From positions 1 to 37,342 of IMG/VR virus record IMGVR_UViG_3300005732_000056: a stretch of DNA of 37,342 nt. One strand, 5' to 3'. The notes under the pieces are model-generated. The model saw nothing but the letters and a program-made list of their open reading frames with translations. It had not been told where the DNA came from and searched no databases. Both the position numbers and the translations under genes were made by a program. This document shows, one piece after another, positions 2,954 through 33,615 of the stretch; the stretch's first letter is position 1; each line of letters opens with the position of its first letter. This DNA is from a virus.

Positions 2954-2968
2954 CACAAACAGTTTGTG
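2954..2968. promoter_or_regulatory. Perfect 15-bp palindrome, candidate operator
   Basis: CACAAAC-A-GTTTGTG is a perfect inverted repeat of 7-bp arms around one base, in the divergent intergenic region between the HTH regulator and the protease gene. Such symmetry suits a dimeric repressor. It overlaps an in-frame TTG at 2964, another reason to prefer the ATG at 2991 for the protease. No consensus plus-strand promoter is clear in this gap. Confidence 0.45.
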
Positions 2969-2990
2969 CGGGCTGAAGTTTGTCGTGCAA

Positions 2991-3980
2991 ATGACTGTAA
3001 AAGCAAGACAATTCGACCTTCCTATAATTATAAGCAAAGCCGACGCCGGTGAAGGCGAAGAAGGTTTTCTTTATTTTGAAGGTTACGCGTCAACTTCGAC
3101 GAAAGATCGACACGGCGATATAATTCCAGCAAGCGCATGGAACGAAAAAGCACTTGAAGCTTTCCGAAAAAATCCAATTATGTTATATGAACATTCACGT
3201 TACGACGTGGCTGGAAAGTTTGACTTAATTGAAGCACGCGACGAAGGGTTGTTTGTACGTGGTGCCGTAGACACTGAATGGCATAGCGCCAACAAGGTCG
3301 GCAAAGGCATATTGAAAGCGCTTTCGGTTCGTTTTTCCGCTGAAGATTGGGAATTCGACGAAAACCGCGAAGCGTGGATAGCGAAAGGTTTAGACCTTCG
3401 CGAAATTAGTATTGTATCAATTCCAGCGGCCCCCGATTCGGTTTTTTCCGTTGAAAAGTCGTTGGGCGCTGAAGAATATAAAGAATTCAAAAAATCACAT
3501 TTAAAGAAAGAAGACATGAACCTTTTGGAACGCGCCAAAGCATTGTTGGCAAAACTTAAAACCGGTGACGCTACCGACAACGAAAAAGCGGAACTTAAAC
3601 AAGTACAAGCTGAAATTGCTAAAGCATTGGACGAAGGCGAAGAAGGTGCTGAAGGTGCTGAAGAAGGTGCTGAAGGTGCTGAAGAAGGTGCTGAAGGTGC
3701 TGAAGAAGGCGCTGAAGGTGCTGAAGAAGGTGCTGAAGAAGGTGCTAGCAACGACGACACACCAGCAGCGGACGCAGCAAAAGCATCACGCGACAAAGAA
3801 TTCGCTGACTTGAAAAAGAAAAACGATATTCTTGAAGCTAAATTGGCGAAAGCCAAGGGCGCGCCAACTGACACCAGCAAAAAAGGCGCAGAAAGCAACC
3901 CGGATTCGGAAACGAAGTTAACCGGAAACGCCAAAGCGGCAAACGAAACGCTTGAATATTATAAGTCTTTGAACTTATAG
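2991..3980 (+). CDS. Prohead protease fused to scaffold-like domain
   Basis: From the ATG at 2991 the product has 329 residues. The first 155 match the HK97-type prohead protease: FEGYAS near residue 30, HGDII, the catalytic His68 in YEHSR, the Ser112 segment LSVRFS, and LREISIVSIPAAP, the conserved terminal strand. This enzyme matures the capsid by cleaving scaffold and capsid proteins inside the prohead. After about residue 160 comes a charged helical region with an acidic Gly-Ala-Glu tandem repeat (about 217-251) and a Lys-rich helix, which suits an in-cis scaffold. It lies directly upstream of the capsid gene, as expected. An in-frame TTG at 2964 would add nine residues but sits in a palindrome. 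Confidence 0.85.
   Translation: MTVKARQFDLPIIISKADAGEGEEGFLYFEGYASTSTKDRHGDIIPASAWNEKALEAFRKNPIMLYEHSRYDVAGKFDLIEARDEGLFVRGAVDTEWHSANKVGKGILKALSVRFSAEDWEFDENREAWIAKGLDLREISIVSIPAAPDSVFSVEKSLGAEEYKEFKKSHLKKEDMNLLERAKALLAKLKTGDATDNEKAELKQVQAEIAKALDEGEEGAEGAEEGAEGAEEGAEGAEEGAEGAEEGAEEGASNDDTPAADAAKASRDKEFADLKKKNDILEAKLAKAKGAPTDTSKKGAESNPDSETKLTGNAKAANETLEYYKSLNL
3639..3746 (+). repeat. 21-bp tandem repeat in the protease-scaffold gene
   Basis: Units 3639-3659, 3660-3680, 3681-3701 and 3702-3722 are near-identical (one T-to-C change in the fourth) and are followed by a shortened unit. They encode repeats of EEGAEGA. The stretch makes an acidic, flexible linker between the protease and the scaffold part and is prone to copy-number change by slippage. 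Confidence 0.85.
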
Positions 3981-4041: not shown

Positions 4042-5256
4042 ATGAAAAAACGCAATTCACTATTTAACGGACTTTTTAGTATTGGTTTCGCTATGGTCTT
4101 CGGGGCCTTGGTTGCCGGTATGTTTAATATTAACCAAGCGGCGGTTTCGGGCGCATTTGGTTTACTTTCGGCGGCTGCAAATTTTGCGCCTATGCCTTCG
4201 GGTTCATTGTTCGCGACGCTTTTACAAGCTGGAACGTATCAATGGAACGGCAAAGAAAACTTTCAAGCTTTATTTCGCCCGCGTTACGCTTCGGTAAAAC
4301 CTGAAGATTTAGGTTTCCGGATCATTCCAAGCGTACAAGACACGCTTAAATTGCACTTCTTTGGCACATTGAAGAAACTTTTAATGCCATACGGAACCGG
4401 CTTTCAAGGTGGTTCGGGTGCAACGCAAAAAATTCGCGTTGTTTCTACTAAAGAATTTAAGGCTGAAGTTCAATATGACAAACACGACTATGACGGTATG
4501 ATTTGGGAAACCCTATTCCAAGACGGAATTGACCAAAACGACGTTACGGCGCAACAATTACTTGACGCTGAAACGACTATCTTCATGGACGGCGTAGACA
4601 ATGACATTAACCGGTTGTTTTGGTTGGCTGACACGGCGAAAACGCACGGTTCCGGCGGCACATATCCGAACGGCGTAACTTATTCAACTTCGGACCCTGA
4701 CTTATATTATAACCAATTCGACGGAATTTTAAAACAACTTGCCGACAGTGACAACACAACGTTGACCGACGGCGAAGTGTTCCGTGTGAATATGGCCGCA
4801 ACGTTAACAACCGACACGGCTGAAGATACTATGAAGGCGTTATTGAACGGTTGCGACAAGCGTTTAAGGAAGCTTAAAGATAGCGGTTTACTTCGCTTCT
4901 ATGTAACCGAATCGTTTATGCAGAACTACGAAGACACGCTTGAAGCCGACGGAACTGAAGCGGCAAGAATGGAAAAAATCAACGGTGTTAACCAGTTGAC
5001 ATATAAAGGTATTCGTTTAATTAAAATCGATATTGAAGAACATTTGGTTGCTGACTTCGGTGCAGCTACGAAAAACTATTGTATTCTTTCAACACCTCAA
5101 AATTTAGCGCTAGTATTAAACACTGCCGGGTCGCGTGCTGAAACGCGTATGTGGTTCAACCCTGACGAAAATGCGCGAAGACATAGAACTCAATTTAAAA
5201 TGGGTGCGAACTATTTGCTTCCTGAATTGATCGCTTATGCAAAATACGAAGCCTAA
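4042..5256 (+). CDS. Major capsid protein (HK97-fold, probable)
   Basis: The 404-residue protein directly follows the protease-scaffold, the usual place for the capsid gene. It has the length and composition of HK97-fold capsid proteins. Features include an extended middle segment (LMPYGTGFQGGSGATQKIRVV), an acidic helix around LLDAETTIFMDGVDNDINRLFW, and a late segment GIRLIKIDIEEHL followed by NYCILSTPQNLAL, which looks like the A-domain strands. The first 60 residues are strongly hydrophobic and Ala/Gly-rich (FAMVFGALVAGMF), signal-like, and could be a cleaved delta-type scaffold region. No assembly cleavage site can be named from sequence. The fold is inferred from context and composition. 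Confidence 0.78.
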   Translation: MKKRNSLFNGLFSIGFAMVFGALVAGMFNINQAAVSGAFGLLSAAANFAPMPSGSLFATLLQAGTYQWNGKENFQALFRPRYASVKPEDLGFRIIPSVQDTLKLHFFGTLKKLLMPYGTGFQGGSGATQKIRVVSTKEFKAEVQYDKHDYDGMIWETLFQDGIDQNDVTAQQLLDAETTIFMDGVDNDINRLFWLADTAKTHGSGGTYPNGVTYSTSDPDLYYNQFDGILKQLADSDNTTLTDGEVFRVNMAATLTTDTAEDTMKALLNGCDKRLRKLKDSGLLRFYVTESFMQNYEDTLEADGTEAARMEKINGVNQLTYKGIRLIKIDIEEHLVADFGAATKNYCILSTPQNLALVLNTAGSRAETRMWFNPDENARRHRTQFKMGANYLLPELIAYAKYEA

Positions 5257-6118: not shown

Positions 6119-6153
6119 AAAAAGTGGTCGGTTTATTCGTCCACTTTTTTTTT
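6119..6153 (+). terminator. Rho-independent terminator overlapping the portal leader
   Basis: AAAAAGTGG (6119-6127) pairs with CCACTTTTT (6141-6149), then more T to 6153. The T-run ends 3 bp before the portal ATG at 6157, so the hairpin would lie in the portal mRNA leader. It probably lowers portal expression relative to the capsid and tube genes. Confidence 0.75.
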
Positions 6154-6156
6154 GTT

Positions 6157-7404
6157 ATGGCTAAAAAAGAAATTAAAAACGCGGAAATATTAGGTTCACC
6201 GGGCAAAACAAAAATTAGCCCGCACAAAAAAACGGGCCTAATAGCTTCAAACAAGGGTTATATTCCCTTCGGTAGTGACAACTTGTTCCCGCAAGCAATA
6301 ATGTATTTAAACCGAAAGGCCGGAATACACCGGGGTATTATGAACCGAAAAATTACGTTCATAAATGGCCGGGGGTTTATGTTTGACGACAACAACACGA
6401 AATTGTCGGAATTCGTTAACGGTTGCGACTATAGGGGGTCAAACCTTCGAAACCTTTCAAAGCGCTTTTATACTGATCGTATTTTCGGGGGTAATGGTTA
6501 TATTGAATTTATTACCGACAACAAGCGAAGCTTCTTTAATATGTCGCACCAAGATAGCACAAAATGCCGTGTTGGTGAAGGTGACAATGAGGGGTATATA
6601 TTACTTCATTCAGATTGGTCGACATACGAATCAAACCGAAAGACATTAAAAAAACTACCTATTTACCCGGAATTCGAAGAAGGTGAAGACGGTTTTTTAC
6701 ATTCAATATTTCACGTTAAAGAGTATGAACCCGAATTCGATCACTACGGGGTTCCGTCTTGGATTGCTGGCTTAAACGCTTCTTCTATAGCATACAAGAC
6801 GAACACATGGAATATTTCAGAACTAGACAACGGTTATAAAATGTCCGGGCTTTTGGTTATGGACGGCGAATTCAAAACGCCTGAAGAAGCCAAAGCGTTC
6901 GACAAGAAGTTGGACGCGGTATATTCGGGTGAAGGCAACCAAGGCCGGGTTTTAAAAGTAAACAAGCCGCCGGAAAGCGACGGTTCTAAATTTGTGCCGT
7001 TTCCAAATAAATCGGAAGGCAATTTTTTAAACCTACACAAGCAAAGCGCCGACGAATTGATTGTTGCACATTCTTGGTTTCCAACCTTGTCGGGTGTTGG
7101 TATCTCAAACGGATTCGAAACCGAACAAATATTGAACGAATACTATATCGCACTTTCTACAATTATAGAAGAAGAACAATCTGTTTTTCTTGAAATGGTC
7201 CGCGCGGTTTTAGATATACAAGGCATTTGTGACGCTTCTTCGTTGGAGTTTGTTAACCGGCCGCCAGTTACCACGAAACCGGATTATATGCGGGTTTGGG
7301 AAGGTCGACGTGCTGACGGTCTTGACTATGACGAAAACGACCCGGCGCAAAAAATGTTTATTGGTCAAATGAAGAACTTCAAAACGATTGAATTAACGCC
7401 ATGA
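6157..7404 (+). CDS. Portal protein
   Basis: From the ATG at 6157 the product has 415 residues, a usual length for siphovirus portals. Consistent segments are GYIPFGSDNLFPQAIMYLNRKAGIHRGIMNRK at the N-terminus, FGGNGYIEF in the wing, an IFHVKEYEPEFDHYGVPSW segment, and SGVGISNGFETEQILNEYY before the long helix STIIEEEQSVFLEMVRAVLD. Portals form the dodecameric DNA channel at one capsid vertex and dock the terminase. A GTG at 6124 in the same frame lies inside the terminator stem and is rejected as start. The gene overlaps the next one by ATGA. It stands downstream of the capsid gene, opposite to the usual order. Confidence 0.85.
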   Translation: MAKKEIKNAEILGSPGKTKISPHKKTGLIASNKGYIPFGSDNLFPQAIMYLNRKAGIHRGIMNRKITFINGRGFMFDDNNTKLSEFVNGCDYRGSNLRNLSKRFYTDRIFGGNGYIEFITDNKRSFFNMSHQDSTKCRVGEGDNEGYILLHSDWSTYESNRKTLKKLPIYPEFEEGEDGFLHSIFHVKEYEPEFDHYGVPSWIAGLNASSIAYKTNTWNISELDNGYKMSGLLVMDGEFKTPEEAKAFDKKLDAVYSGEGNQGRVLKVNKPPESDGSKFVPFPNKSEGNFLNLHKQSADELIVAHSWFPTLSGVGISNGFETEQILNEYYIALSTIIEEEQSVFLEMVRAVLDIQGICDASSLEFVNRPPVTTKPDYMRVWEGRRADGLDYDENDPAQKMFIGQMKNFKTIELTP

Positions 7405-7892
7405 GTACAAGCAATTTTATAACGGTTTCGGAAGTGCTTTCGATAGCTTTTCGACGCGATAACGTGGACAAAAAAAACATTCCTTCAGACTTTATTGAAA
7501 TGTGTGAAGAAAACTATATTCGCCCGGCCTTGGGCGACACCCTTTTCGATCGCCTGAACACTAGTTCACCAAGCCCCGCTTTTACCGCCCAAGAAACGGC
7601 GGTTCTTTCTAAGATCAAGAAACCCTTGGCGTATTATGTCAAACATGAAGTTTTGCCTGAATTATCGGTAAAAATTTCGAATAGTGGTATGTCAATAATA
7701 AATTCGCACCAAGCCGAAGCCGGTGACGCGAAAGCGCGTTCTGAAATGCGACAAGCTACACTTCGAACGGCTGAACAATTTATGCTTTTAGTTAAGCGAT
7801 ATTTGGAAGATAATAAAGACGATCTTTCCAACTTCAAAAGCGGCGAAGATTCGCATAACGAATATAAAATGCACGGGGGTATAATTTTATAA
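7401..7892 (+). CDS. Head-tail connector (adaptor) protein, probable
   Basis: The 163-residue product directly follows and overlaps the portal gene. It is largely helical with segments typical of head-completion adaptors: FIEMCEENYIRPALGDTLFDRL, then LAYYVKHEVLPELSVKISNSG, and a C-terminal helical stretch LRTAEQFMLLVKRYLEDN. Connectors of this kind (DUF6712-like in Bacteroidota phages) form the ring under the portal that receives the tail. The call relies on position and helical layout, since the family is poorly conserved. Confidence 0.65.
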   Translation: MSTSNFITVSEVLSIAFRRDNVDKKNIPSDFIEMCEENYIRPALGDTLFDRLNTSSPSPAFTAQETAVLSKIKKPLAYYVKHEVLPELSVKISNSGMSIINSHQAEAGDAKARSEMRQATLRTAEQFMLLVKRYLEDNKDDLSNFKSGEDSHNEYKMHGGIIL

Positions 7893-7893
7893 T

Positions 7894-8784
7894 ATGGCTA
7901 ACAATACAAAAGCCGGACTTTTTGCCGGTGGTGCTGGTTGGGGTGTTTGGACGGTAGCCGTCCATTCAGTTTTAAGAATACCTTATCAAACTTTTATTGG
8001 GACAAGTACGGGCGCGCTTATTGCGTTGTTTTTGGCCCTTGCACGCATAGATTCGCGTTTCTACGAAATTTTGATCTATGAGTATCTAAATATCACGAAT
8101 TATCAAATGTATGGCTTCCTTTCGCCGTACAAGAAGAACGGCAAAATTAACCGGGCCAAGTTGGGGGCCGCGTTAATTCGAATGATATGGCAAAATAAAA
8201 ACCATGCTTACGACATTGGCAAAGAATTAGAACGCCGAATATTAAAGCACTTCGACAAAAAATTGTTTGACACGTTACGCGCCCGAAATATAGACGTTAT
8301 TGTAACGGTTAATTGTGTTTCGCTAAAGAACGAACCAACGCGTTACGTTAGCATATTGAAAAAAAGCATGACTTTCGAAAGGTTTGTTAAAGCGGTCGTT
8401 GCCAGTGCTTCAATTCCTTATTTCGCTAAACCCGTTATTTGGAACAACCGTTCGCACACCGACGGCGGCGTGTTTGACACCGCGCCAACCGGTTTAATAT
8501 CAAAATACAAATTCCCGGACATTTGGTTAATGCACTCTTTACAGTCTGAAGAATCTTCACACCAAGAAGTAGACGGATTTTTAAAACTTGCCGGCGCTTT
8601 GTTTAATGGTATGCGCGCGGAAATAAAACGCGACGACCTGAAGGGCGTAAAAGACGCACAAGTGTATTATTCGCCAAGCTTTTCTTGGTCCGCTGCGGAT
8701 TTTAATAAGGCAAGAATGAAGGAAGCGTTCAACCGTGGAATATCTGACGCCGAAAACAATAATATTGTAATGGTTCAAAAATGA
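7894..8784 (+). CDS. Patatin-like phospholipase
   Basis: The 296-residue protein shows all patatin landmarks. These are a glycine-rich oxyanion-hole region (FAGGAGWGVW, residues 10-19), the nucleophile elbow GTSTG with Ser38, the segment VVASASIPYFAKPV (about 168-181), and the catalytic Asp190 in the DGG motif (HTDGGVFD). Patatins are Ser-Asp dyad acyl hydrolases that cleave membrane phospholipids. No signal peptide is present, so it acts in the cytoplasm or needs release through a holin. It is translationally coupled (ATGA) to a PAS-domain gene and lies two genes before the endolysin, so a role in membrane destruction at lysis is the simplest inference. A role in entry or anti-defence is also possible. 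Confidence 0.85.
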   Translation: MANNTKAGLFAGGAGWGVWTVAVHSVLRIPYQTFIGTSTGALIALFLALARIDSRFYEILIYEYLNITNYQMYGFLSPYKKNGKINRAKLGAALIRMIWQNKNHAYDIGKELERRILKHFDKKLFDTLRARNIDVIVTVNCVSLKNEPTRYVSILKKSMTFERFVKAVVASASIPYFAKPVIWNNRSHTDGGVFDTAPTGLISKYKFPDIWLMHSLQSEESSHQEVDGFLKLAGALFNGMRAEIKRDDLKGVKDAQVYYSPSFSWSAADFNKARMKEAFNRGISDAENNNIVMVQK

Positions 8785-9230
8785 CTGATAGCCAAAGAAT
8801 TCTTGATAAATTTTTAGACGCCGTTTTAAGTATTCAAGACCCGGTTAACCCGAATTATGAAATGTTAATTGCGCGAAAGTTGCGTCGATACCCTTTTGCA
8901 AGTGTTGTTTATACTGAATTTCGCGACGGTGAAGTGTTTATATTGAAGGCCGACGATAGAATTGAAGGTATAACCGGGTATAAACCCGAAGAACTAGCTG
9001 GAAAGCCATTAACTTTTATAATGTTTAAACCATTTGAACCGAAGACGTTGGCGAAGACAATGGACGAACTAGTAAAATACGGCGCCAGCTTAAAGACTAA
9101 TTTAAACAAGAAGAAAGACGGAACTTCGGTTGAAACATTTGGCGTTCTTGAAGATATGGGTAAAAACCTATATCGTGAAGTTGTAGTTGACGCGTCTAAA
9201 ATTATAGGCCATGAAGTTAGAAAACCTTAA
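8781..9230 (+). CDS. Stand-alone PAS-domain protein
   Basis: The 149-residue product is essentially one PAS fold. A strand with VVYTEFRDGEVFILKADDRIEGITGY leads into YKPEELAGKPLTFIMF (the usual G-y-x-p-e-E-l-x-G-x-x-l), then a helix with DELVKYGASL, and a KKDGTSVETFGVLEDM strand pair. PAS domains sense ligands, redox state or light, or mediate dimerisation, normally joined to kinases or cyclases. Here there is no output domain. Its start overlaps the patatin stop (ATGA) and its end overlaps the following TM gene, so it is made with the lipase and may bind or regulate it. The cofactor cannot be told from sequence. Confidence 0.72.
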   Translation: MTDSQRILDKFLDAVLSIQDPVNPNYEMLIARKLRRYPFASVVYTEFRDGEVFILKADDRIEGITGYKPEELAGKPLTFIMFKPFEPKTLAKTMDELVKYGASLKTNLNKKKDGTSVETFGVLEDMGKNLYREVVVDASKIIGHEVRKP

Positions 9231-9519
9231 CCATTTAGCAAGTATAGCGGCTAGCATATTTGTAATATTTGGCGGCGGTTCTATAGTTGTTTTTTGGAAA
9301 CGAATCACAAACAAAAAAGAAGTCGACCAAATAAAAGAAGAATTGGCCGTTGCTTTAATCGATTTACAAAAAAGCGAAGAACGCGCTGAAGTTGTTGTTG
9401 CCAAGCTTGCCAAATTTGAAACAACCGTTCGCGCCTTTAAGAGTGCGGCCCAAGCGAACCCGGAAGTTGCAAATGCGGTTTTGCCGTTTTTAGATGATTT
9501 AATACACGAAAAAAAATGA
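9211..9519 (+). CDS. One-TM protein with coiled coil, lysis-cassette member
   Basis: The 102-residue product has one hydrophobic segment (HLASIAASIFVIFGGGSIVVFW, about residues 8-29), then a basic stop-transfer patch (KRITNKK). A long charged coiled coil follows (about 38-80) and ends in a short helical C-terminus. It overlaps the PAS gene by 20 bp and the endolysin gene by 4 bp (ATGA). The topology fits a small holin-like, antiholin or inner-membrane spanin-like protein, but no family is recognisable. The context supports a role in lysis. Confidence 0.6.
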   Translation: MKLENLNHLASIAASIFVIFGGGSIVVFWKRITNKKEVDQIKEELAVALIDLQKSEERAEVVVAKLAKFETTVRAFKSAAQANPEVANAVLPFLDDLIHEKK

Positions 9520-10337
9520 GTTTAATTAGTAAAATTAATACGAAGGGAATTCGAACCTTCTTCTTGCGCGCCGTTGCGGCTATAGTTGCGTTAATTCACG
9601 TAGTTGGTATGTGTTTACATTATTTTCTTGGTCAAGCAATAGACCACGTTCTGTTTCAAACGAACGCGCAGTTGTTTTATTGGATCGTAATAGGTACCGT
9701 TGTTGACGGTGTGGCGCGTGTTCCGGAAATACGATCTTTTGTCGGCGCCACTGTAGGGCGTTTAAGAGGTAAAAAGAAGCCGGGCGACGCAATTACCCAA
9801 GAAGAAGAAGAAACGGCTTCAGATGAAGCGAAACACCCCGAAGAAGTACTATATAAGACCGCGAAACAATATATTGGTGTTGAAGAAGTAGCTGGCGCGA
9901 TACACAACAAGACAATTATGTCTTGGATCGATAAATTGAACTTCAAAGTTAAATTTGGTATTGATAGCGACGAAATTCCTTGGTGTGGAACTATGGCTTG
10001 CGGTTGTGCTGACGAAGCCGGACTTGAACACCCCGGAAGCGCAAACGCAAAACAATGGCAAACGGTTGGCGAAAGGTTTGAACCGGGAAAAACTGAAGTT
10101 CCGGCTGGTATTTACGGAATAGTTGCCGTTTCGCACCGAAAATATATTTCGCAAAGTCTTCTTGACGGTCCGGGACACGTTGAAATTGTAGACCCGACTT
10201 CTTTTAAGCCTGACGGAACATATAAAACAATTGCGGGCAACCTAAACCGCGACAAGTCAAAAGGCAAAGTTGGCGTTTCAATAAGGAACACAAACGACCC
10301 TATGTTCATAGGCTTCTTTTTGTTGGGGCCTTCTTAG
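9516..10337 (+). CDS. Membrane-anchored endolysin, holin-like N-terminus fused to a Cys/His peptidase domain
   Basis: The product has 273 residues. Two hydrophobic segments occupy about residues 14-39 (FFLRAVAAIVALIHVVGM) and 51-68 (AQLFYWIVIGTVVDGVAR), followed by a charged acidic linker (about 85-110). The C-terminal domain begins TAKQYIGVEEVAG and carries PWCGTMACGCADEAGL with catalytic Cys157, then AKQWQTVGE, and His221 in GPGHVEIV. This is the layout of TIGR02594/NlpC-P60-like phage amidases or peptidases that cut peptidoglycan. Fusing holin-like helices to the lysin would deliver it to the membrane without a separate holin. It is the last gene of the four-gene cassette, and a promoter for the next unit follows. 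Confidence 0.78.
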   Translation: MSLISKINTKGIRTFFLRAVAAIVALIHVVGMCLHYFLGQAIDHVLFQTNAQLFYWIVIGTVVDGVARVPEIRSFVGATVGRLRGKKKPGDAITQEEEETASDEAKHPEEVLYKTAKQYIGVEEVAGAIHNKTIMSWIDKLNFKVKFGIDSDEIPWCGTMACGCADEAGLEHPGSANAKQWQTVGERFEPGKTEVPAGIYGIVAVSHRKYISQSLLDGPGHVEIVDPTSFKPDGTYKTIAGNLNRDKSKGKVGVSIRNTNDPMFIGFFLLGPS

Positions 10338-12436: not shown

Positions 12437-13759
12437 ATGACAAACAACAAAAACAACAATGAAGAAGCCGCTGAAGTAGTGGTTGTTTCTTCCAACGAAA
12501 TTTCAAAACAAATTGAAGAAGCTGGTTTGGTTCCGGCAAGCGATAGCGCCGTAAAAATTACGAATTCCTTCACACAATTCTTTCAAGACATAAACCAATA
12601 TAAAGAACGCGTTCAAGCTTTGGTTGTTACCGACGAAACACAAGTCGACAAAATGAAAGAAGCGCGTGAAGCGCGTTTGAAGCTTGTTAAAATACGAACG
12701 GGCGCGGACGGTGTTCGAAAAGACTTAAAAGCCGAATCAAACCGTTACAATAAAGCCGTTCAGGGTGTTTACAATATACTTGAATATGTTGTAAAACCTA
12801 TGGAAGAACATTTGTTAAAACAAGAACAATATATTGTTTTGAAGCGTCAACAAGAACAAGAAGCGCTTCGTATTTCGCGACAAAAAGAGTGCGAACCATA
12901 CCGGGAATTTATACCGTTAGGTGTTGACCTTGGTAAAATGGTAGACACTGAATATCAAAAACTATTCAACGGGGCGAAGCTTCAGTTCGACCAGCGCGAA
13001 GAACTAAAAAGGAAAGAAGAAGCTGAAAGGGTTGAAGCCCAAAAGAAAGAAGAAGCCCGCATTGAAGCCGAACGCGTGGCGAAAGAACGACTTGAAAAAC
13101 AACGAAGTGTTCGCTACGACGAAATAGCGCCGTTTGTGCCGGTGTATATTGAAAAGCCCGGTGTTTTTATTGATCTTCCTGAAGAAGAATATTTAATCGA
13201 ATTGTGTAAAATAAAAGAAGCGGCAAAAAAAGAAGAAGAAGAACGTATTGAAGCCGCGCGTGTAAAAAAAGAACGCGAAGAACTTATTGCCGCACGTCGC
13301 GAACAATTGTCGCCGTATATGTTTTACATAGATGATTTTGACGGTGTTTTAAACCTTCCAAATGAATCTTATGACATAGAGTTCAAAAAGATTGTGGAAC
13401 GTGCAGAAAAGGCAAAGAAGGACGCCGAAGAAGCCCGTTTAAAACGCGAAGAAGAAGCCCGAATTGCAAAAGCAAAGGCTGAAGAAGCTGAAAAGAAAGC
13501 GAAAGCCGAAAAGGCTGAAAAAGACCGAATTGCCGCCGAACTAAAAAGGCGCGAAGAAGCTGAATCGAAAGCAAAAGCTGAAGAAGAAGCGCGGATTGAA
13601 GCCGAATTAAACAAGGGTGACGCCGAAAAGGTTGAAGACTTAGTTGACGATTTAAACGGATTGAAAACTAAATATAAATTTAAGTCTTCCAAGAACCGGA
13701 AAATGTACGAAGAACTTTCGTCTTTGATCAATGAATTAATAACACACGTTAAAAGGTAG
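12437..13759 (+). CDS. DUF1351-like coiled-coil protein with three internal repeats
   Basis: The product has 440 residues. Residues about 60-135 resemble the DUF1351 family found beside phage recombinases (LVVTDETQVDKMKEAREARL, VRKDLKAESNRYNKA). The rest is long charged coiled coil interrupted by three similar modules at about 153-190, 226-268 and 286-330. Each module has a pF/pY turn, a short strand, L-P-x-E-x-Y and a helix (compare IDLPEEEYLIELCKIK with LNLPNESYDIEFKKIV). The last 35 residues form another small helical unit. It starts 10 bp after the exonuclease gene, suggesting a structural or accessory partner in recombination. Confidence 0.6.
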   Translation: MTNNKNNNEEAAEVVVVSSNEISKQIEEAGLVPASDSAVKITNSFTQFFQDINQYKERVQALVVTDETQVDKMKEAREARLKLVKIRTGADGVRKDLKAESNRYNKAVQGVYNILEYVVKPMEEHLLKQEQYIVLKRQQEQEALRISRQKECEPYREFIPLGVDLGKMVDTEYQKLFNGAKLQFDQREELKRKEEAERVEAQKKEEARIEAERVAKERLEKQRSVRYDEIAPFVPVYIEKPGVFIDLPEEEYLIELCKIKEAAKKEEEERIEAARVKKEREELIAARREQLSPYMFYIDDFDGVLNLPNESYDIEFKKIVERAEKAKKDAEEARLKREEEARIAKAKAEEAEKKAKAEKAEKDRIAAELKRREEAESKAKAEEEARIEAELNKGDAEKVEDLVDDLNGLKTKYKFKSSKNRKMYEELSSLINELITHVKR

Positions 13760-16718: not shown

Positions 16719-17252
16719 ATGAATAACGCAGAAAACAACACTAAAAGCTTAATCGATCAACTTAAAATTGAAACGGTTGAATTAAAAAACGCATATATCG
16801 CGCGCACGAAGGAATTCACAAACGCGGAATACAATAGAATTGTAGAACGAAAAAATTGGAGTGCGAAAGAATGGTGTGAACTTTTGGGTTTAGAACCATT
16901 AAAAAACGCAAACGGCAAATATTCATTTCCTAAAAACTTTTTTAATACTTCAGATTCAAGAAAACACTTTAAACTAGAAGCTGAAGCTTTTCGTGTTGCA
17001 AGTAAAACGCAAGCGCAACACCTAGAAGTCGCTATTTCTGACGCTGAAAAACATTTCGCCGGATCAATTGAAAAGCTAGCGCTTAGAGTAATAAAAAAGG
17101 GGCTTAATTTAGGTTCGTTTAAAATGCAATCTACTTATTTAGACCCCAATATGTCGACCGTGATAACTGACGGTAAAATAACCGTTCGCGCATATACGAT
17201 AATTGCCGGCGGTCCTATTCAAAAGCCGCACTATAGATATTTAGTTAAATAA
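16719..17252 (+). CDS. Hypothetical protein, probably translated from a leaderless mRNA
   Basis: The product has 177 residues. The N-terminal half is helical (SLIDQLKIETVELKNAYIART, EYNRIVERKNWSAKEWCELLGL). The C-terminal part is strand-rich, with a KMQSTYLDPNMSTVITDGKI segment and an ending ...YRYLVK. No family is recognised. The ATG lies at the predicted transcription start of a strong promoter, and no alternative ATG with a normal leader occurs within the first 100 residues. It could act in early takeover, which is inferred only from the promoter type. Confidence 0.6.
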   Translation: MNNAENNTKSLIDQLKIETVELKNAYIARTKEFTNAEYNRIVERKNWSAKEWCELLGLEPLKNANGKYSFPKNFFNTSDSRKHFKLEAEAFRVASKTQAQHLEVAISDAEKHFAGSIEKLALRVIKKGLNLGSFKMQSTYLDPNMSTVITDGKITVRAYTIIAGGPIQKPHYRYLVK

Positions 17253-17254
17253 TT

Positions 17255-17491
17255 ATGCCAAACACACACACAAACGAAGACAAGCCCGTAAGGGCGACAA
17301 CGGTACACGGTGAAGTTTTATCTGCCAGTGTAGACGTTTTTATCTTAGACAAAGCCGCGCCGCCAAGGGTCGGATATTACGACTATAATTTGGAACGGTG
17401 GTTCTTTTATGACGAAGAAGAATATAACAATTGGGCCTTTGTTTGGATTTACGTCCCTTCGGAAATGGTCGAAAAGTTAAAAACGCTTTGA
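17255..17491 (+). CDS. Small hypothetical protein
   Basis: The product has 78 residues, acidic and aromatic-rich (VGYYDYNLERWFFYDEEEYNNWAFVWIYVPSEM), with the pattern of many short phage proteins of unknown role. No motif is recognised. It lies 2 bp after the preceding gene, so the two are co-translated. Confidence 0.5.
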   Translation: MPNTHTNEDKPVRATTVHGEVLSASVDVFILDKAAPPRVGYYDYNLERWFFYDEEEYNNWAFVWIYVPSEMVEKLKTL

Positions 17492-17502
17492 TTGTTCATA
17501 TA

Positions 17503-17586
17503 TTGAATTTTGCCGCTGGCGCCTTAATTGGTGCGATATTGTGGTGTATTGTAGAATTAATAAAAATGATAATTAAAAATGATTGA
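17503..17586 (+). CDS. Possible 27-residue membrane peptide
   Basis: A short frame beginning TTG at 17503 (or ATT at 17491, overlapping the previous stop) reads NFAAGALIGAILWCIVEL then IKMIIKND. This is one clear membrane helix with a basic end. It overlaps the next gene by 8 bp, which fits the compact operon. There is no ATG start, so this is tentative. Small membrane peptides are common in phage accessory regions. Confidence 0.35.
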   Translation: MNFAAGALIGAILWCIVELIKMIIKND

Positions 17587-17773
17587 CAACAAACCGCCGA
17601 CAAGGCTTAAAAACACAATTAAAGCCATTAAAGCCATTAAAGCCACTGAAGGGCAAAGCGGAACGATAGAGTGTCCACAATGCAAAGGTTCTATTCTATG
17701 GCGCAAGAATGGCGACAACGGCCATATTTGGGGCCGGTGCAACTTGAAGGGGTGTTTAGATTGGAATGAATAA
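17579..17773 (+). CDS. Small zinc-ribbon-like protein
   Basis: The product has 64 residues. Two Cys pairs, CPQC and CNLKGC, separated by 17 residues with aromatic and Gly positions (LWRKNG, HIWGRC), indicate a small zinc ribbon. The N-terminus is encoded by 9-bp repeats giving IKAIKAIKAT. Such proteins bind nucleic acid or partner proteins. It is the last gene before a 400-bp noncoding stretch with a tRNA. Confidence 0.6.
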   Translation: MIDNKPPTRLKNTIKAIKAIKATEGQSGTIECPQCKGSILWRKNGDNGHIWGRCNLKGCLDWNE

Positions 17774-17858
17774 GAATTTGACAAACCGGGGGCCGGGGGC
17801 CGCGTGCTTTTAAGCTGCGTTTATATTTGTACTGCGTAGACGCTTCGCCCGGTGTCGG

Positions 17859-17889
17859 TTTGTTATTTGTGTAATAAAATATACTTTTG
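17859..17889 (+). promoter_or_regulatory. tRNA promoter
   Basis: TTTG (17859-17862), exactly 19 bp, TACTTTTG (17882-17889). The predicted transcription start falls at about 17893, the first base of the tRNA, so the 5' end may need little or no RNase P trimming. Confidence 0.8.
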
Positions 17890-17892
17890 CGC

Positions 17893-17965
17893 CGCGCGGT
17901 GGTGTAGCGGTTAACATAGCGGATTCATAACCCGCAGATCATTGGTTCGAACCCAATTCGCGCAA
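17893..17965 (+). tRNA. tRNA-Met (anticodon CAT), initiator-like acceptor
   Basis: A 73-nt cloverleaf fits. Acceptor CGCGCGG pairs with TCGCGCA except for the first pair, which is C1-A72, the mark of bacterial initiator tRNA. D stem GTGT/ACAT with loop AGCGGTTA. Anticodon stem GCGGA/CCCGC (last pair A-C) with loop TTCATAA. Variable loop AGATC. T stem ATTGG/CCAAT with loop TTCGAAC. Discriminator A73 is followed by CAACA, so CCA is not encoded. The D stem pair T11-A24 is elongator-like, and only two of the three initiator G-C pairs are present in the anticodon stem. A lysidine-modified Ile tRNA is another possibility for CAT. Confidence 0.82.
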
Positions 17966-18080
17966 CAACAACACAAACGAAGCTTGTGAATTTTCCGAAC
18001 AATTCGGCGTCGCGTTTTTAATCTCTTTTCGAAATAAACGGCGCCGGGTTTAAGGTTCTGAAGCAAGCACTGGAAACCAA

Positions 18081-18112
18081 GGGGCGACAACTTATTCGAC
18101 GCCCCTTTTTTT
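18081..18112 (+). terminator. Rho-independent terminator of the tRNA unit
   Basis: GGGGCG (18081-18086) pairs with CGCCCC (18100-18105), followed by seven T. Confidence 0.88.
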
Positions 18113-18126
18113 ATTCAAAAAAATTC

Positions 18127-18156
18127 TTGTTTATATCAAATAACAACCTATCTTTG
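18127..18156 (+). promoter_or_regulatory. Promoter, second copy of the duplicated 35-bp element
   Basis: TTG (18127-18129), 19 bp, TATCTTTG (18149-18156), identical in 34 of 35 bases to the copy at 16684. The leader to the ATG at 18181 is about 20 nt and includes AAAAAGGAATAATAATT. Confidence 0.8.
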
Positions 18157-18180
18157 TGTTGTTAAAAAGGAATAATAATT

Positions 18181-21644: not shown

Positions 21645-23105
21645 ATGCCAAGAATTGAAGCGCAACCGGGGTTTCAAGAAGAATTTTTAAAATCCAAAGC
21701 CGATATTGCGGTCGGTGGTGGTTCGGCTGGTGCTGGTAAATCGTTCGCCTTACTAATGGAAGCCGGTCGAAACGTTGGTGTTGAAGGCTATAATGCCGTT
21801 TTATTTAGGCGAACAAGCCCACAAATTCGGCAAGCTGGCGGCCTTTGGGACACTAGTACAGAACTATACACCAGTATAGGCGGCGAACCGCACGAAACGT
21901 TTTTGGAATGGCGTTTCGGCAACGAATCGAAGATCAAGTTCGCACACCTTCAGTATGAAAAAGATAAAATTTCGTGGCAAGGCGCACAAATAGCAATGAT
22001 AGGATTCGACGAATTGACGCACTTTTCACAAACTACTTTCGACTACTTGTTAAGCCGTAACCGTACAATGTGCGGAATTAAGCCATATATTCGGGCCACT
22101 TGCAACCCCGACCCCGATTCATGGGTCGCCAAATTCTTGTCTTGGTGGATCGATCAAGACCAAACAAGCCCGACGTATGGACTAGCAATTCCCGAACGCG
22201 CTGGTGTTATACGCTGGTTTGCCCGTGACGCTGGAAACTATGTTTGGGGCGACACACCCGAAGAAGTTGTTGCTAAGTGTCCGCACATATTCGAAAACGA
22301 AGCGTTGAAAGACATAAAGGTTTCGGACTTGGTTAAGTCGGTGACTTTTATACCGGGAACAATACACGATAACGCTAAACTTTTGAAGAAAGACCCGGCT
22401 TACTTGTCGAACCTATTGGCCCAAGACGACGCAATGGTCGCCCAATTATACCGGGGTAACTGGAAAGTAAGAATTGACGGCAACGACTTGATAAACCTTT
22501 CAAACCTTCGCAACTGTTACACAAACAAATTTGTTGAAAAGGGTTTGAAGTATATAACGGCCGACATTGCTTTGCACGGTTCCGACCGGTTTGTCGTTGC
22601 GGTTTGGTCCGGTTGGCGCTTGATCGACTTGGCGGTAATGGAAAAAAGCGAAGGCGACGAAGTAATAAAACTAATTGAACAAAAGGCGCTACAACATAGT
22701 GTACCGCAATCAAATATTGTTTATGACGCTGACGGCGTTGGTGCTTATCTTCGTGGCTTCTTGCGTAACGCTAGGGCGTTTAAGAACGGAAGCAAACCGT
22801 TCAGGGGTGAAAACTTTTTCAACTTAAAAACGCAATGTGCGTATAAATTGGCCGAAATAATCAACGACGACTTGGTTTATATTTCGCCCCTTGTCGCTTC
22901 AATGAAATTTGATTCTCAAAATGTAACTGAAATATTTGAAGACGAAAGACGATGTTTGAAGCGACTTAAACCCGACGACGACGGAAAGTTGAGAATAATT
23001 ACAAAGCCCGAAATGAAAAACATTCTTGGGCGTTCTCCCGATTTTTTAGACGCGTTAATAATGCGCGCATATTTCGACGTTCGGCGTAAGTTTATGACAA
23101 TGTAA
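21645..23105 (+). CDS. terL: Large terminase subunit
   Basis: The product has 486 residues. The ATPase half has Walker A GSAGAGKS (residues 26-33), Walker B IAMIGFDE (116-123) and the coupling motif TCNP (152-155). The RNase H-like nuclease half has TADIAL (Asp307), VYDADGVG (Asp361) and a last Asp in SPDFLDALIM. This motor cuts concatemeric DNA and drives it through the portal. Length and motif order are standard. It is separated from the portal and capsid genes by about 12 kb, which is unusual. Confidence 0.93.
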   Translation: MPRIEAQPGFQEEFLKSKADIAVGGGSAGAGKSFALLMEAGRNVGVEGYNAVLFRRTSPQIRQAGGLWDTSTELYTSIGGEPHETFLEWRFGNESKIKFAHLQYEKDKISWQGAQIAMIGFDELTHFSQTTFDYLLSRNRTMCGIKPYIRATCNPDPDSWVAKFLSWWIDQDQTSPTYGLAIPERAGVIRWFARDAGNYVWGDTPEEVVAKCPHIFENEALKDIKVSDLVKSVTFIPGTIHDNAKLLKKDPAYLSNLLAQDDAMVAQLYRGNWKVRIDGNDLINLSNLRNCYTNKFVEKGLKYITADIALHGSDRFVVAVWSGWRLIDLAVMEKSEGDEVIKLIEQKALQHSVPQSNIVYDADGVGAYLRGFLRNARAFKNGSKPFRGENFFNLKTQCAYKLAEIINDDLVYISPLVASMKFDSQNVTEIFEDERRCLKRLKPDDDGKLRIITKPEMKNILGRSPDFLDALIMRAYFDVRRKFMTM

Positions 23106-31352: not shown

Positions 31353-33615
31353 CGTTAACGTAATTGTAAACGACGAAGAAATATATGACTTTGTACCCGG
31401 AAGTCTTGGGTTGTCGACCAATTGGCAAGCCAAGCTTATAGACGATATTAACGCATATAGGTTAAAGCACACCAAAACAATAACGTTAATTTTAACCAAA
31501 AGCTTGTCGAAGATATTGGGCGCGCCGTTGGTTTTAGATTCTCCTTCAGAATTAAACCCAATAAGCAAACCGACGATATTAATTGAAGTCGACGGCCAAC
31601 GCTTTATTGAGGGTTACATGAAGATAACCAGCGGATCAATTTTCGCAATTGGCGGCACAATTGAATTTTCAGTTATACCAATAGAAAAAGACTTTATTTC
31701 GGCGCTTAAAGCTTTGAATATGCGCGATATTGATTTATCGGGAATGAATCACACGTTCAACGAAACCAATATATATTTGAACATGACAAGCGTTTCGGCG
31801 CCTACCGAATACGCGTATTTTCCGGTTCATGTTGGTCGTGTTGGGTATAGAAAAATACTTTCTATTGTTGACGCTGGCGGCGGTGTGGCGCGTGTGTATT
31901 ATATCGGTGAAAGAATTACGACGCCCGAAACGGTTGACGTTGTTGGGTGTGAAGATTCGTCTTATAATGTAACCAACGCGACTTTTTCCGACGAAGTTTC
32001 TACGTTTTGGAATGGAATAAACGTTTGGCGCGCAACGACGCCGGATATAACCGTAAAAGAAAACGGGTATAACCAAACCGGATTTTTTAAATACAATTCG
32101 GAAACGTTTTGGCGTATGCACGACTTTGTTCCGGCCGTGAATATGAAAGAATTATTTTTGGCAATGTTTGAATCGATCGGTTGGGAAGTTTCCGGCGACG
32201 ATTATTTAAACATATTGGCCGACAAGTGGCACTATCAATATAATATGTCATTGTTTTCGGAAGCCCTGAAGAAACGACTTGAATATAGAACGGGAATACA
32301 AGAAGGACACTTTACACTTACGGGCGTAGCGGGTCCGGTGGTGGTCCCTTTTCGAAAGTTTGAAGAACTTGGTTTAAATTCAAACCAATATTATAACGAC
32401 ACCGATTCGGATAATTTAACGCAAATTGTAGGAAACAACCACGTTTCCGAATGGGTCGCGCCCGAAACCGGCTGGTTTCATATCGAATCAAGGTGTTATT
32501 TCCTAGGCAACGCGTCATTGATCGACATTTCTGTTTACGACGGGGGTGGAAGCCATTATTTGACCGTTGACACGGCTGGCATAACTTCAACGGCTGGAAG
32601 CTACGACGAAAAGTTGTTCGGCTTGGCATACATTCCGGCGGGCTATTCTGTTCGGGTAACAATTACGTTTACCGGGTCAACGTTCACCCCGGTATTGTTT
32701 GACGATTCTTATTTCCACGGGGTACCGGTTCCGGCACTACTTGACGGAATGACCGCACACCCGCAAGAAATACTTCCAAATAATACGGCTTATGAGTGGT
32801 TGAAAGACTTGTCTTTACTTCACCAGTTAAGGCTTTACCCGGACGAAGTGAAGAAGAAAGTTTTTGCAGTTTTGGACAAAGACAATATGACCGGACAAAC
32901 GAACGATTGGGTTCAAAAATTGGATCGTAGCGCCGAAATAGAGGTCAAACCGGTTTCGCTTTTTCACCCCTTGAAATATAGGTTTGATTGGTTAAGCGAT
33001 TCGAACGACTACGAAATGACGTTCCGCGAAAGTATTTCGGGGCGTTATGCTGGCGGCGAAGTGGACAACCCGAACCCGTTCGTTGAAGGCACCACAACGA
33101 AAGCTTTATCGATCTATGCGGCCACAATAAACGGAATTGAACGCTATGAAGGCGCTTTTGAAATGGGAAACCCAATAATGAGGGGCGAAGACGGTGAAAG
33201 GAAAGACTACGAAGCCCGTATTTTCGAAATAGATCGCGATTTTAATTTGTGGGTCTACTATGAAGACACCAACGTATTGCAATTTTTCTATTTCGAATCA
33301 AATAATACTACAGATTACCCAAGGGCATATTTCCCGGAAGAACTACATTTTGAAGAACTAATTGCGGACTATTGGGGCCGTATGATAGACGCGATTAAAT
33401 TCGGTGTGTTAATCCGGGCCGCCTTTGGATTAAATGCAACCGACGCGTTAAAATTCAACGATATTTCCGAAAAAAGTGTCGAATTTCGTAAGTGGCACCA
33501 AATAAAAGTCAATGGAACGGAAGTTCGCGCTGAATTACTTGGTATTAAAGACTACCAACCAACCAACAACGAAAACACAATTTGTGAATTATTATGTCAG
33601 ATATTAAGAAACTAG
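31345..33615 (+). CDS. Tail hub / tail-associated protein
   Basis: The product has 756 residues. The N-terminal 130 (SLGLSTNWQAKLIDDINAYRL, then KTITLILTKSLSKILGAPLVL, FIEGYMKITSGSI) match a pattern of large tail-tip proteins in Bacteroidota phages, where a lipase- or hub-like domain begins with a T-x-x-x-x-P/K-T-x-x-x-x-K-x-L-G segment. The middle and C-terminus are beta-rich with no enzymatic motif visible. It is probably the tail hub or Tal equivalent. Its end overlaps the tape measure by 22 bp. Confidence 0.6.
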   Translation: MANVNVIVNDEEIYDFVPGSLGLSTNWQAKLIDDINAYRLKHTKTITLILTKSLSKILGAPLVLDSPSELNPISKPTILIEVDGQRFIEGYMKITSGSIFAIGGTIEFSVIPIEKDFISALKALNMRDIDLSGMNHTFNETNIYLNMTSVSAPTEYAYFPVHVGRVGYRKILSIVDAGGGVARVYYIGERITTPETVDVVGCEDSSYNVTNATFSDEVSTFWNGINVWRATTPDITVKENGYNQTGFFKYNSETFWRMHDFVPAVNMKELFLAMFESIGWEVSGDDYLNILADKWHYQYNMSLFSEALKKRLEYRTGIQEGHFTLTGVAGPVVVPFRKFEELGLNSNQYYNDTDSDNLTQIVGNNHVSEWVAPETGWFHIESRCYFLGNASLIDISVYDGGGSHYLTVDTAGITSTAGSYDEKLFGLAYIPAGYSVRVTITFTGSTFTPVLFDDSYFHGVPVPALLDGMTAHPQEILPNNTAYEWLKDLSLLHQLRLYPDEVKKKVFAVLDKDNMTGQTNDWVQKLDRSAEIEVKPVSLFHPLKYRFDWLSDSNDYEMTFRESISGRYAGGEVDNPNPFVEGTTTKALSIYAATINGIERYEGAFEMGNPIMRGEDGERKDYEARIFEIDRDFNLWVYYEDTNVLQFFYFESNNTTDYPRAYFPEELHFEELIADYWGRMIDAIKFGVLIRAAFGLNATDALKFNDISEKSVEFRKWHQIKVNGTEVRAELLGIKDYQPTNNENTICELLCQILRN

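What the first reader, a model, noticed from the sequence alone, without database searches (positions are those of the whole stretch)
7894..10337. Four-gene coupled cassette: patatin lipase, PAS protein, TM coiled coil, holin-endolysin
Seen: a complete patatin-like phospholipase (GTSTG, DGG), a stand-alone PAS domain, a one-TM coiled-coil protein and a two-TM endolysin overlap one another (ATGA, 20 bp, ATGA). Known: patatins hydrolyse phospholipids, PAS domains sense small molecules or redox state, and endolysins cut peptidoglycan. Inference: this may be a lysis system in which a phospholipase replaces or helps spanins to break membranes, with a PAS partner controlling timing by cell state. 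I know of no described phage lysis module with this set.
Basis: partly seen in the sequence, partly recalled or inferred. Interest (0 to 1): 0.82.

Follow-up and report, generated by a model that had tools for sequence, protein, structure and literature searches.

The report
Phospholipase gene in a phage lysis cassette
A virus of (probably) Bacteroidota bacteria carries a fat-splitting enzyme gene tightly joined to its cell-bursting genes, and the same kind of gene sits beside differently built wall-cutting enzymes in several otherwise unrelated viruses, which suggests that it helps to break the bacterial membranes when new viruses leave the cell.

Summary
The four genes are real and overlap as described: patatin (7894-8784), PAS protein (8781-9230), one-TM coiled-coil protein (9211-9519), membrane-anchored endolysin (9516-10337). 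The patatin is intact by sequence (Pfam E=2e-21; Ser38/Asp190 invariant in 20 phage homologues). Overlap alone proves little, since much of this genome overlaps likewise. Comparison supports the lysis reading: homologous patatins lie beside endolysins in four other elements: M15 endolysins (L218, L228), an amidase with a recognised holin upstream (L229), and a TIGR02594-type endolysin in a Cytophagales genome (L309). L228's patatin is 49% identical and is the only gene its contig shares with the window. Small N-terminal-TM proteins are enriched beside non-T4 phage patatins (12/17 loci, 6.6 expected, p=0.0006). The PAS protein is found only here, so PAS control is unsupported. A patatin-based lytic cassette was already proposed for Wolbachia phage WO, with another patatin subfamily, a similar TM-coil protein and no canonical endolysin. 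Against: T4-like phages keep patatins away from lysis genes, and no activity is measured. Verdict: new variant of a proposed kind, worth testing as a membrane-disrupting (spanin-like) lysis factor.

The parts
7894..8784 (+). patatin-like phospholipase (296 aa), no signal peptide; Gly loop GGAGWG (residues 12-17), nucleophile S38 in GTSTG, D190 in DGG
   Evidence: Pfam PF01734 E=1.8e-21; S38, G40, D190, G191 invariant in 20 phage patatins; AlphaFold2 pLDDT 87, Foldseek hits CapV, CapE, PlpD, plant patatin
8781..9230 (+). stand-alone PAS-domain protein (149 aa), overlaps patatin by ATGA
   Evidence: TIGR00229 23.4 bits, cut-off 22.9; PAS_9 E=8e-4, below Pfam cut-off; phototropin LOV/PAS by phmmer E=9e-4, no LOV cysteine
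9211..9519 (+). N-terminal one-TM, charged coiled-coil protein (102 aa), holin-like or spanin-like candidate; 20-bp overlap with the PAS gene
   Evidence: TM residues 9-27, positive charges on the C-terminal side of the TM; same architecture next to patatins in other phages and in phage WO
9516..10337 (+). membrane-anchored endolysin: N-terminal TM hairpin (16-34, weaker 45-63) plus TIGR02594-type cysteine hydrolase domain; ATGA overlap
   Evidence: TIGR02594 E=1.8e-12; phrog_1259 E=2e-12; tblastn to 'putative lysin' of Acinetobacter phage ABMM1 E=2e-8; TM prediction
7401..7892 (+). context: DUF6712 head-completion-type protein, ends 1 bp before the patatin start
   Evidence: PF20459 E=1.8e-13
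6124..7404 (+). context: portal protein
   Evidence: PF04860 E=2.7e-10, phrog_11226 E=2e-21

Best explanation
The block is the lysis cassette of a Bacteroidota-type tailed phage, placed at the end of the head-gene block, and the patatin is one of its working parts. SHOWN: a catalytically intact patatin gene is joined by overlapping starts to a PAS gene, a TM coiled-coil gene and a membrane-anchored endolysin gene; homologous patatins stand beside endolysins of other folds in other phages. INFERRED: the patatin, which has no signal peptide, accumulates in the cytoplasm late in infection. When the membrane hairpin of the endolysin protein and/or the one-TM coiled-coil protein permeabilise the inner membrane, the endolysin domain cuts peptidoglycan and the patatin deacylates phospholipids of the inner membrane and of the inner leaflet of the outer membrane. 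This does by hydrolysis what spanins do by fusion. The PAS protein is a local, lineage-specific addition; a regulatory role is only a guess.
For: Patatins directly beside endolysins in separate elements. L218: TM-coil, 2-TM protein, patatin, M15 endolysin (phrog_894 E=1e-25). L228: patatin 49% identical, TM protein, M15 endolysin E=7.5e-18, overlapping starts. L229: holin (phrog_2359 E=4e-10), patatin, TM-coil, Amidase_2 E=1.6e-21. L309, in a Cytophagales genome: patatin, 2-TM holin-like, TM-coil, multi-TM protein, endolysin (phrog_9589 E=1e-11). The patatin is the only protein the window shares with L228's contig, as for a gene that moves by itself between lysis blocks. Two well-separated patatin clades are lysis-linked. 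Small N-TM proteins lie within 3 genes of 12/17 non-T4 phage patatins, 6.6 expected, p=0.0006. Catalytic residues are invariant. Phage WO independently pairs a patatin with a TM-coil protein. No lipobox spanin was found in the window.
Against: About a dozen T4-like contigs (several near-copies) carry related patatins between tail/structural genes and terminase or tail sheath, with no endolysin recognised next door, and RM378 has one beside a DNA polymerase gene; so patatin in a phage does not always mean lysis. Late genes here are all tightly packed, so adjacency to lysis genes could be incidental. No enzymatic or lysis data. The endolysin score is under the TIGR02594 cut-off. The spanin search was a simple lipobox scan. 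The relatives were found by pattern scans that cover only part of the family.
Confidence: 0.6

Rival explanations
1. The patatin is a virion-associated or late accessory enzyme (entry through the host membrane, or lipid remodelling during assembly) that merely lies next to the lysis genes in a packed late operon.
For: It follows the portal and DUF6712 head genes with 1 bp spacing; T4-like relatives keep patatin among tail and terminase genes.
Against: In five elements the neighbours are holin/TM/endolysin genes of different families; the gene, not the head module, is what is shared with L228.
Confidence: 0.2
2. The patatin is an auxiliary metabolic or host-interaction gene (release of fatty acids, membrane change), as suggested for a marine megaphage and for Burkholderia prophage morons, with no role in lysis.
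For: Published annotation of phage patatins as AMG or moron (PMC9723777, PMC2920897); Bacteroidota hosts carry a chromosomal homologue beside an M1-type aminopeptidase gene.
Against: Phage patatins form lineages outside the chromosomal clade and repeatedly sit beside endolysins; the gene is embedded by overlapping starts rather than as a free-standing moron.
Confidence: 0.12
3. The patatin with its PAS partner is a signal-gated effector, for example exclusion of rival phages or an abortive action resembling the CBASS phospholipase CapV, with PAS as the sensor.
For: Nearest solved folds are CapV and CapE; weak PADLOC phospholipase-effector hits; PAS is translationally coupled; a degenerate receiver-domain protein overlaps the patatin of L244.
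Against: PADLOC scores are weak; no nucleotide cyclase was recognised near it (not searched systematically); PAS is missing from the other patatin loci seen; the endolysin neighbours fit lysis better.
Confidence: 0.08

Closest known systems
Putative patatin-based lytic cassette of Wolbachia phage WO (PMC9203015; PMC3173496)
   Same: Patatin beside a small protein with one N-terminal TM and a charged C-terminal coiled coil, next to the tail/late genes; proposed exit function.
   Different: WO has no canonical endolysin and has an ankyrin-TM protein; its patatin belongs to another subfamily (BLASTP E=0.017 to the window, hhalign 96%). Here an endolysin is present and the host group is free-living Bacteroidota-type.
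Canonical Gram-negative holin / endolysin / spanin cassette
   Same: Endolysin with membrane segments and a small TM coiled-coil protein in one overlapping block.
   Different: No recognised spanin; an intracellular-type phospholipase takes a place in the block.
Mycobacteriophage LysB esterase (own knowledge, not tested)
   Same: Idea of a lipid-acting hydrolase added to the endolysin to breach an outer lipid layer.
   Different: Different fold, substrate (mycolyl-arabinogalactan) and host envelope.
CBASS phospholipases CapV/CapE and chromosomal Bacteroidota patatins
   Same: Patatin fold with Ser-Asp dyad.
   Different: CapV/CapE are activated by cyclic nucleotides in a defence operon; the chromosomal copies stand beside an aminopeptidase gene; the window gene is in a phage late operon and on a separate branch.

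Membership tests
Patatin-like phospholipase (PF01734) | Family profile match over the catalytic domain | tested here: met
   E=1.8e-21, 77.6 bits vs cut-off 27.7
Patatin-like phospholipase (PF01734) | Ser nucleophile in GxSxG and Asp in DG[GA] | tested here: met
   S38 in GTSTG, D190 in DGG, invariant in 20 phage patatins
Patatin-like phospholipase (PF01734) | Gly-rich oxyanion loop GGGxR/KG | tested here: inconclusive
   GGAGWG; glycines 12, 13, 17 kept, basic residue replaced by Trp; nearest relative has GGAAWG
Patatin-like phospholipase (PF01734) | Phospholipase A activity | not testable with these tools
   needs an assay
Phage WO-type patatin lytic cassette | Patatin close to a <150-aa protein with one N-terminal TM and charged coiled coil | tested here: met
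   102-aa protein two genes downstream, 35% charged after TM; the PAS gene lies between
Phage WO-type patatin lytic cassette | No canonical endolysin; ankyrin-repeat TM protein present | tested here: not met
   Endolysin at 9516-10337; none of the four cassette proteins matched an ankyrin family. So not a WO-type member
Holin-endolysin-spanin cassette | Endolysin domain | tested here: met
   TIGR02594-like E=1.8e-12 (below curated cut-off), phrog_1259 E=2e-12, phage 'putative lysin' relative
Holin-endolysin-spanin cassette | Holin | tested here: inconclusive
   No holin family matched in the window; TM hairpin of the endolysin and the TM-coil protein are candidates; L229 and L309 have holin-family matches beside patatin
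Holin-endolysin-spanin cassette | Spanin pair or unimolecular spanin | tested here: not met
   No plausible lipobox gene in the window (simple scan); the TM-coil protein has positive charges on the wrong side of the TM for an i-spanin
PAS domain | PAS/S-box profile | tested here: met
   TIGR00229 23.4 bits vs 22.9; Pfam models under cut-off
LOV photosensor | Adduct-forming Cys in the NCRFLQ motif | tested here: not met
   GKPLTFIM aligned to GHNCRFLQ
CBASS phospholipase CapV | Profile match at curated strength and cyclase in the operon | tested here: not met
   NF041079 18.7 bits vs cut-off 200; cyclase not systematically searched

The most novel reading that the evidence does not exclude
Phospholipid hydrolysis by phage patatins is a widespread, more than once evolved third step of phage lysis (a spanin alternative) in Bacteroidota and other phages, used with several unrelated endolysins, and in this phage gated by a PAS sensor.
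Probability: 0.15. Interest if true: 0.88.

Novelty: new variant of a known kind. Interest (0 to 1): 0.62.

Why it matters
How phages of Bacteroidota breach the outer membrane is poorly described. A membrane-lipid hydrolase that recurs beside M15, amidase and TIGR02594 endolysins would be a lysis strategy that needs no spanin, would put the untested phage WO proposal on a broader footing, and can be tested in ordinary laboratory E. coli lysis assays.

Tried and rejected
Single-protein scans of IMG/VR with patatin, PAS, endolysin and portal found nothing; plasmids: no patatin match; phages: one weak hit, a 462-kb phage. Terminase relatives do not carry the patatin, so the cassette does not travel with the terminase; I dropped that route. 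Searches of about 1,400 genomes in four Bacteroidota orders mostly returned chromosomal patatins; of the loci whose neighbourhoods were opened, one (L280/L309) lies in a phage-like element. AlphaFold2 of the PAS protein alone failed (pLDDT 38), so no claim is made on its pocket. I considered calling the 212-aa L309 protein a GAF sensor and rejected it: no family match. Considered LOV photosensing: rejected, no cysteine. Considered CBASS CapV: rejected as membership. Overlapping starts as proof of a functional unit: rejected, too common in this genome. Promoter scan: no more hits than shuffled sequence, not used.

Full report
WHAT IS THERE. The window is a complete IMG/VR virus record of 37,342 bp. 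Gene content is that of a tailed phage with Bacteroidota-type relatives: protease 2964-3980, capsid 4042-5256, portal 6124-7404, DUF6712 7401-7892, early genes from 10396, terminase 21645-23105 and a long (984-aa) protein 33594-36548 that reads as the tape measure. Terminase relatives lie in Carboxylicivirga, Chryseobacterium, Flavicella and other Bacteroidota genomes. The four genes of the finding exist at the stated coordinates with the stated overlaps.

PATATIN. PF01734 E=1.8e-21. Nucleophile S38 (GTSTG) and D190 (DGG) are invariant in an alignment of 20 phage patatins. The Gly loop is GGAGWG; the nearest relative has GGAAWG, other lysis-linked copies have the usual GGGSKG. The AlphaFold2 model on that alignment has pLDDT 87.4, pTM 0.88; Foldseek's best solved structures are CapV, CapE, PlpD and plant patatin, and a profile search of PDB sequences agrees. 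There is no signal peptide, so the enzyme should start in the cytoplasm (sequence reading).

PAS. TIGR00229 just over cut-off, Pfam PAS_9 below, phototropin LOV by phmmer E=9e-4, but without the LOV cysteine. No relative was found in phages or in eight patatin-carrying records.

TM-COIL AND ENDOLYSIN. The 102-aa protein has one TM at residues 9-27 and a charged helix behind it; positive charges follow the TM, which suggests the helix stays in the cytoplasm and speaks against an ordinary i-spanin (positive-inside rule, own knowledge). The 273-aa protein has one strong and one weaker TM and a TIGR02594-type domain, related to a 'putative lysin' of an Acinetobacter phage. N-in/C-in topology is likely from the charges (inference), so a holin-like hairpin fused to an endolysin is plausible.

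CONTEXT BEYOND CHANCE. Overlapping starts are frequent in this genome, so I looked for recurrence. A profile of the window patatin with Bacteroidota chromosomal patatins found 18 viral loci; profiles with phage members found more. Four elements besides the window place the patatin in an endolysin block. L218: TM-coil, 2-TM protein, patatin, M15 endolysin (phrog_894 E=1.2e-25), overlapping starts. L228: patatin 49% identical, TM protein, M15 endolysin E=7.5e-18. L229: holin family phrog_2359 E=3.8e-10, patatin, TM-coil, Amidase_2 E=1.6e-21. L309, integrated in a Cytophagales genome: patatin, a 2-TM holin-like protein, TM-coil, multi-TM protein, TIGR02594-type endolysin phrog_9589 E=1e-11. The patatin is the only protein that the window shares with the L228 contig at E<=0.01. 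Across 17 non-T4 patatin loci (window included), 12 have a small N-TM protein within three genes, 6.6 expected from random positions on the same loci, p=0.0006.

COUNTER-EVIDENCE. T4-like contigs (L210-L226, several of them near-copies) keep the patatin between tail/structural genes and terminase or tail sheath, without an endolysin recognised by eye; RM378 carries one beside a DNA polymerase gene. The N-TM enrichment is not significant for the T4 group. So a lysis role is claimed for the cassette type seen here, not for all phage patatins.

PHYLOGENY. Window and L228 form one clade (100/100), L218 and L229 another (100/99); all phage groups lie outside the chromosomal clade. One or two origins of the lysis-linked type cannot be told apart.

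KNOWN PRECEDENT. [quoted passage not shown] earlier PMC3173496). Its patatin is of another subfamily. Other reports treat phage patatins as AMG or moron (PMC9723777, PMC2920897). I found no paper in the held library that links patatins with endolysin cassettes of Bacteroidota phages; most subscription papers are not held.

MECHANISM. Most likely: late expression; membrane lesion by the hairpin/TM-coil proteins; endolysin cuts the wall; patatin deacylates phospholipids in the inner membrane and inner leaflet of the outer membrane, so that the envelope fails without spanins. Only the gene arrangement and the catalytic residues are shown; the rest is inference, about 60% likely for a lysis role at all, lower for the exact step.

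VERDICT. Observation confirmed; interpretation partly supported; new variant of a proposed kind; interest 0.62.

Noticed in passing
L210, L213, L215, L216, L217, L220, L222, L225 (patatin coordinates): T4-like phage contigs carry a patatin at a recurring place between tail/structural genes and the terminase or tail sheath; in L217, L220, L224 and L225 a conserved 2-TM protein (163-193 aa) lies one or two genes upstream.
   Followed up: partly
L244:6812-7351: A receiver-domain protein (PF00072 E=1e-4) whose usual phospho-Asp position reads Ser overlaps the end of the patatin gene, followed by a TM-coil protein: a second case of a signalling-type domain coupled to a phage patatin.
   Followed up: partly
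L309 and L312 (one contig of a Cytophagales genome): Integrated element with many repeated fibre-like genes, small TM proteins and a lytic-transglycosylase-like gene but no tail genes seen by eye; possibly a tailless phage with a patatin lysis block.
   Followed up: partly
window 4042-5256: The capsid protein candidate begins with a strongly hydrophobic, TM-like segment (residues 10-28), unusual for a capsid protein.
   Followed up: no
L176, L177, L184: Flavobacterial chromosomes carry this patatin type, in L177 and L184 as a tandem pair; in L176 and L177 it lies just behind an M1-type aminopeptidase gene.
   Followed up: no
window 12437-13759: 440-aa protein made largely of charged coiled coil with repeated KEEEER-type stretches, between an exonuclease-like gene and small early genes.
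   Followed up: no
window 17893-17966: tRNA-Met gene in an otherwise gene-poor stretch (17250-18180).
   Followed up: no
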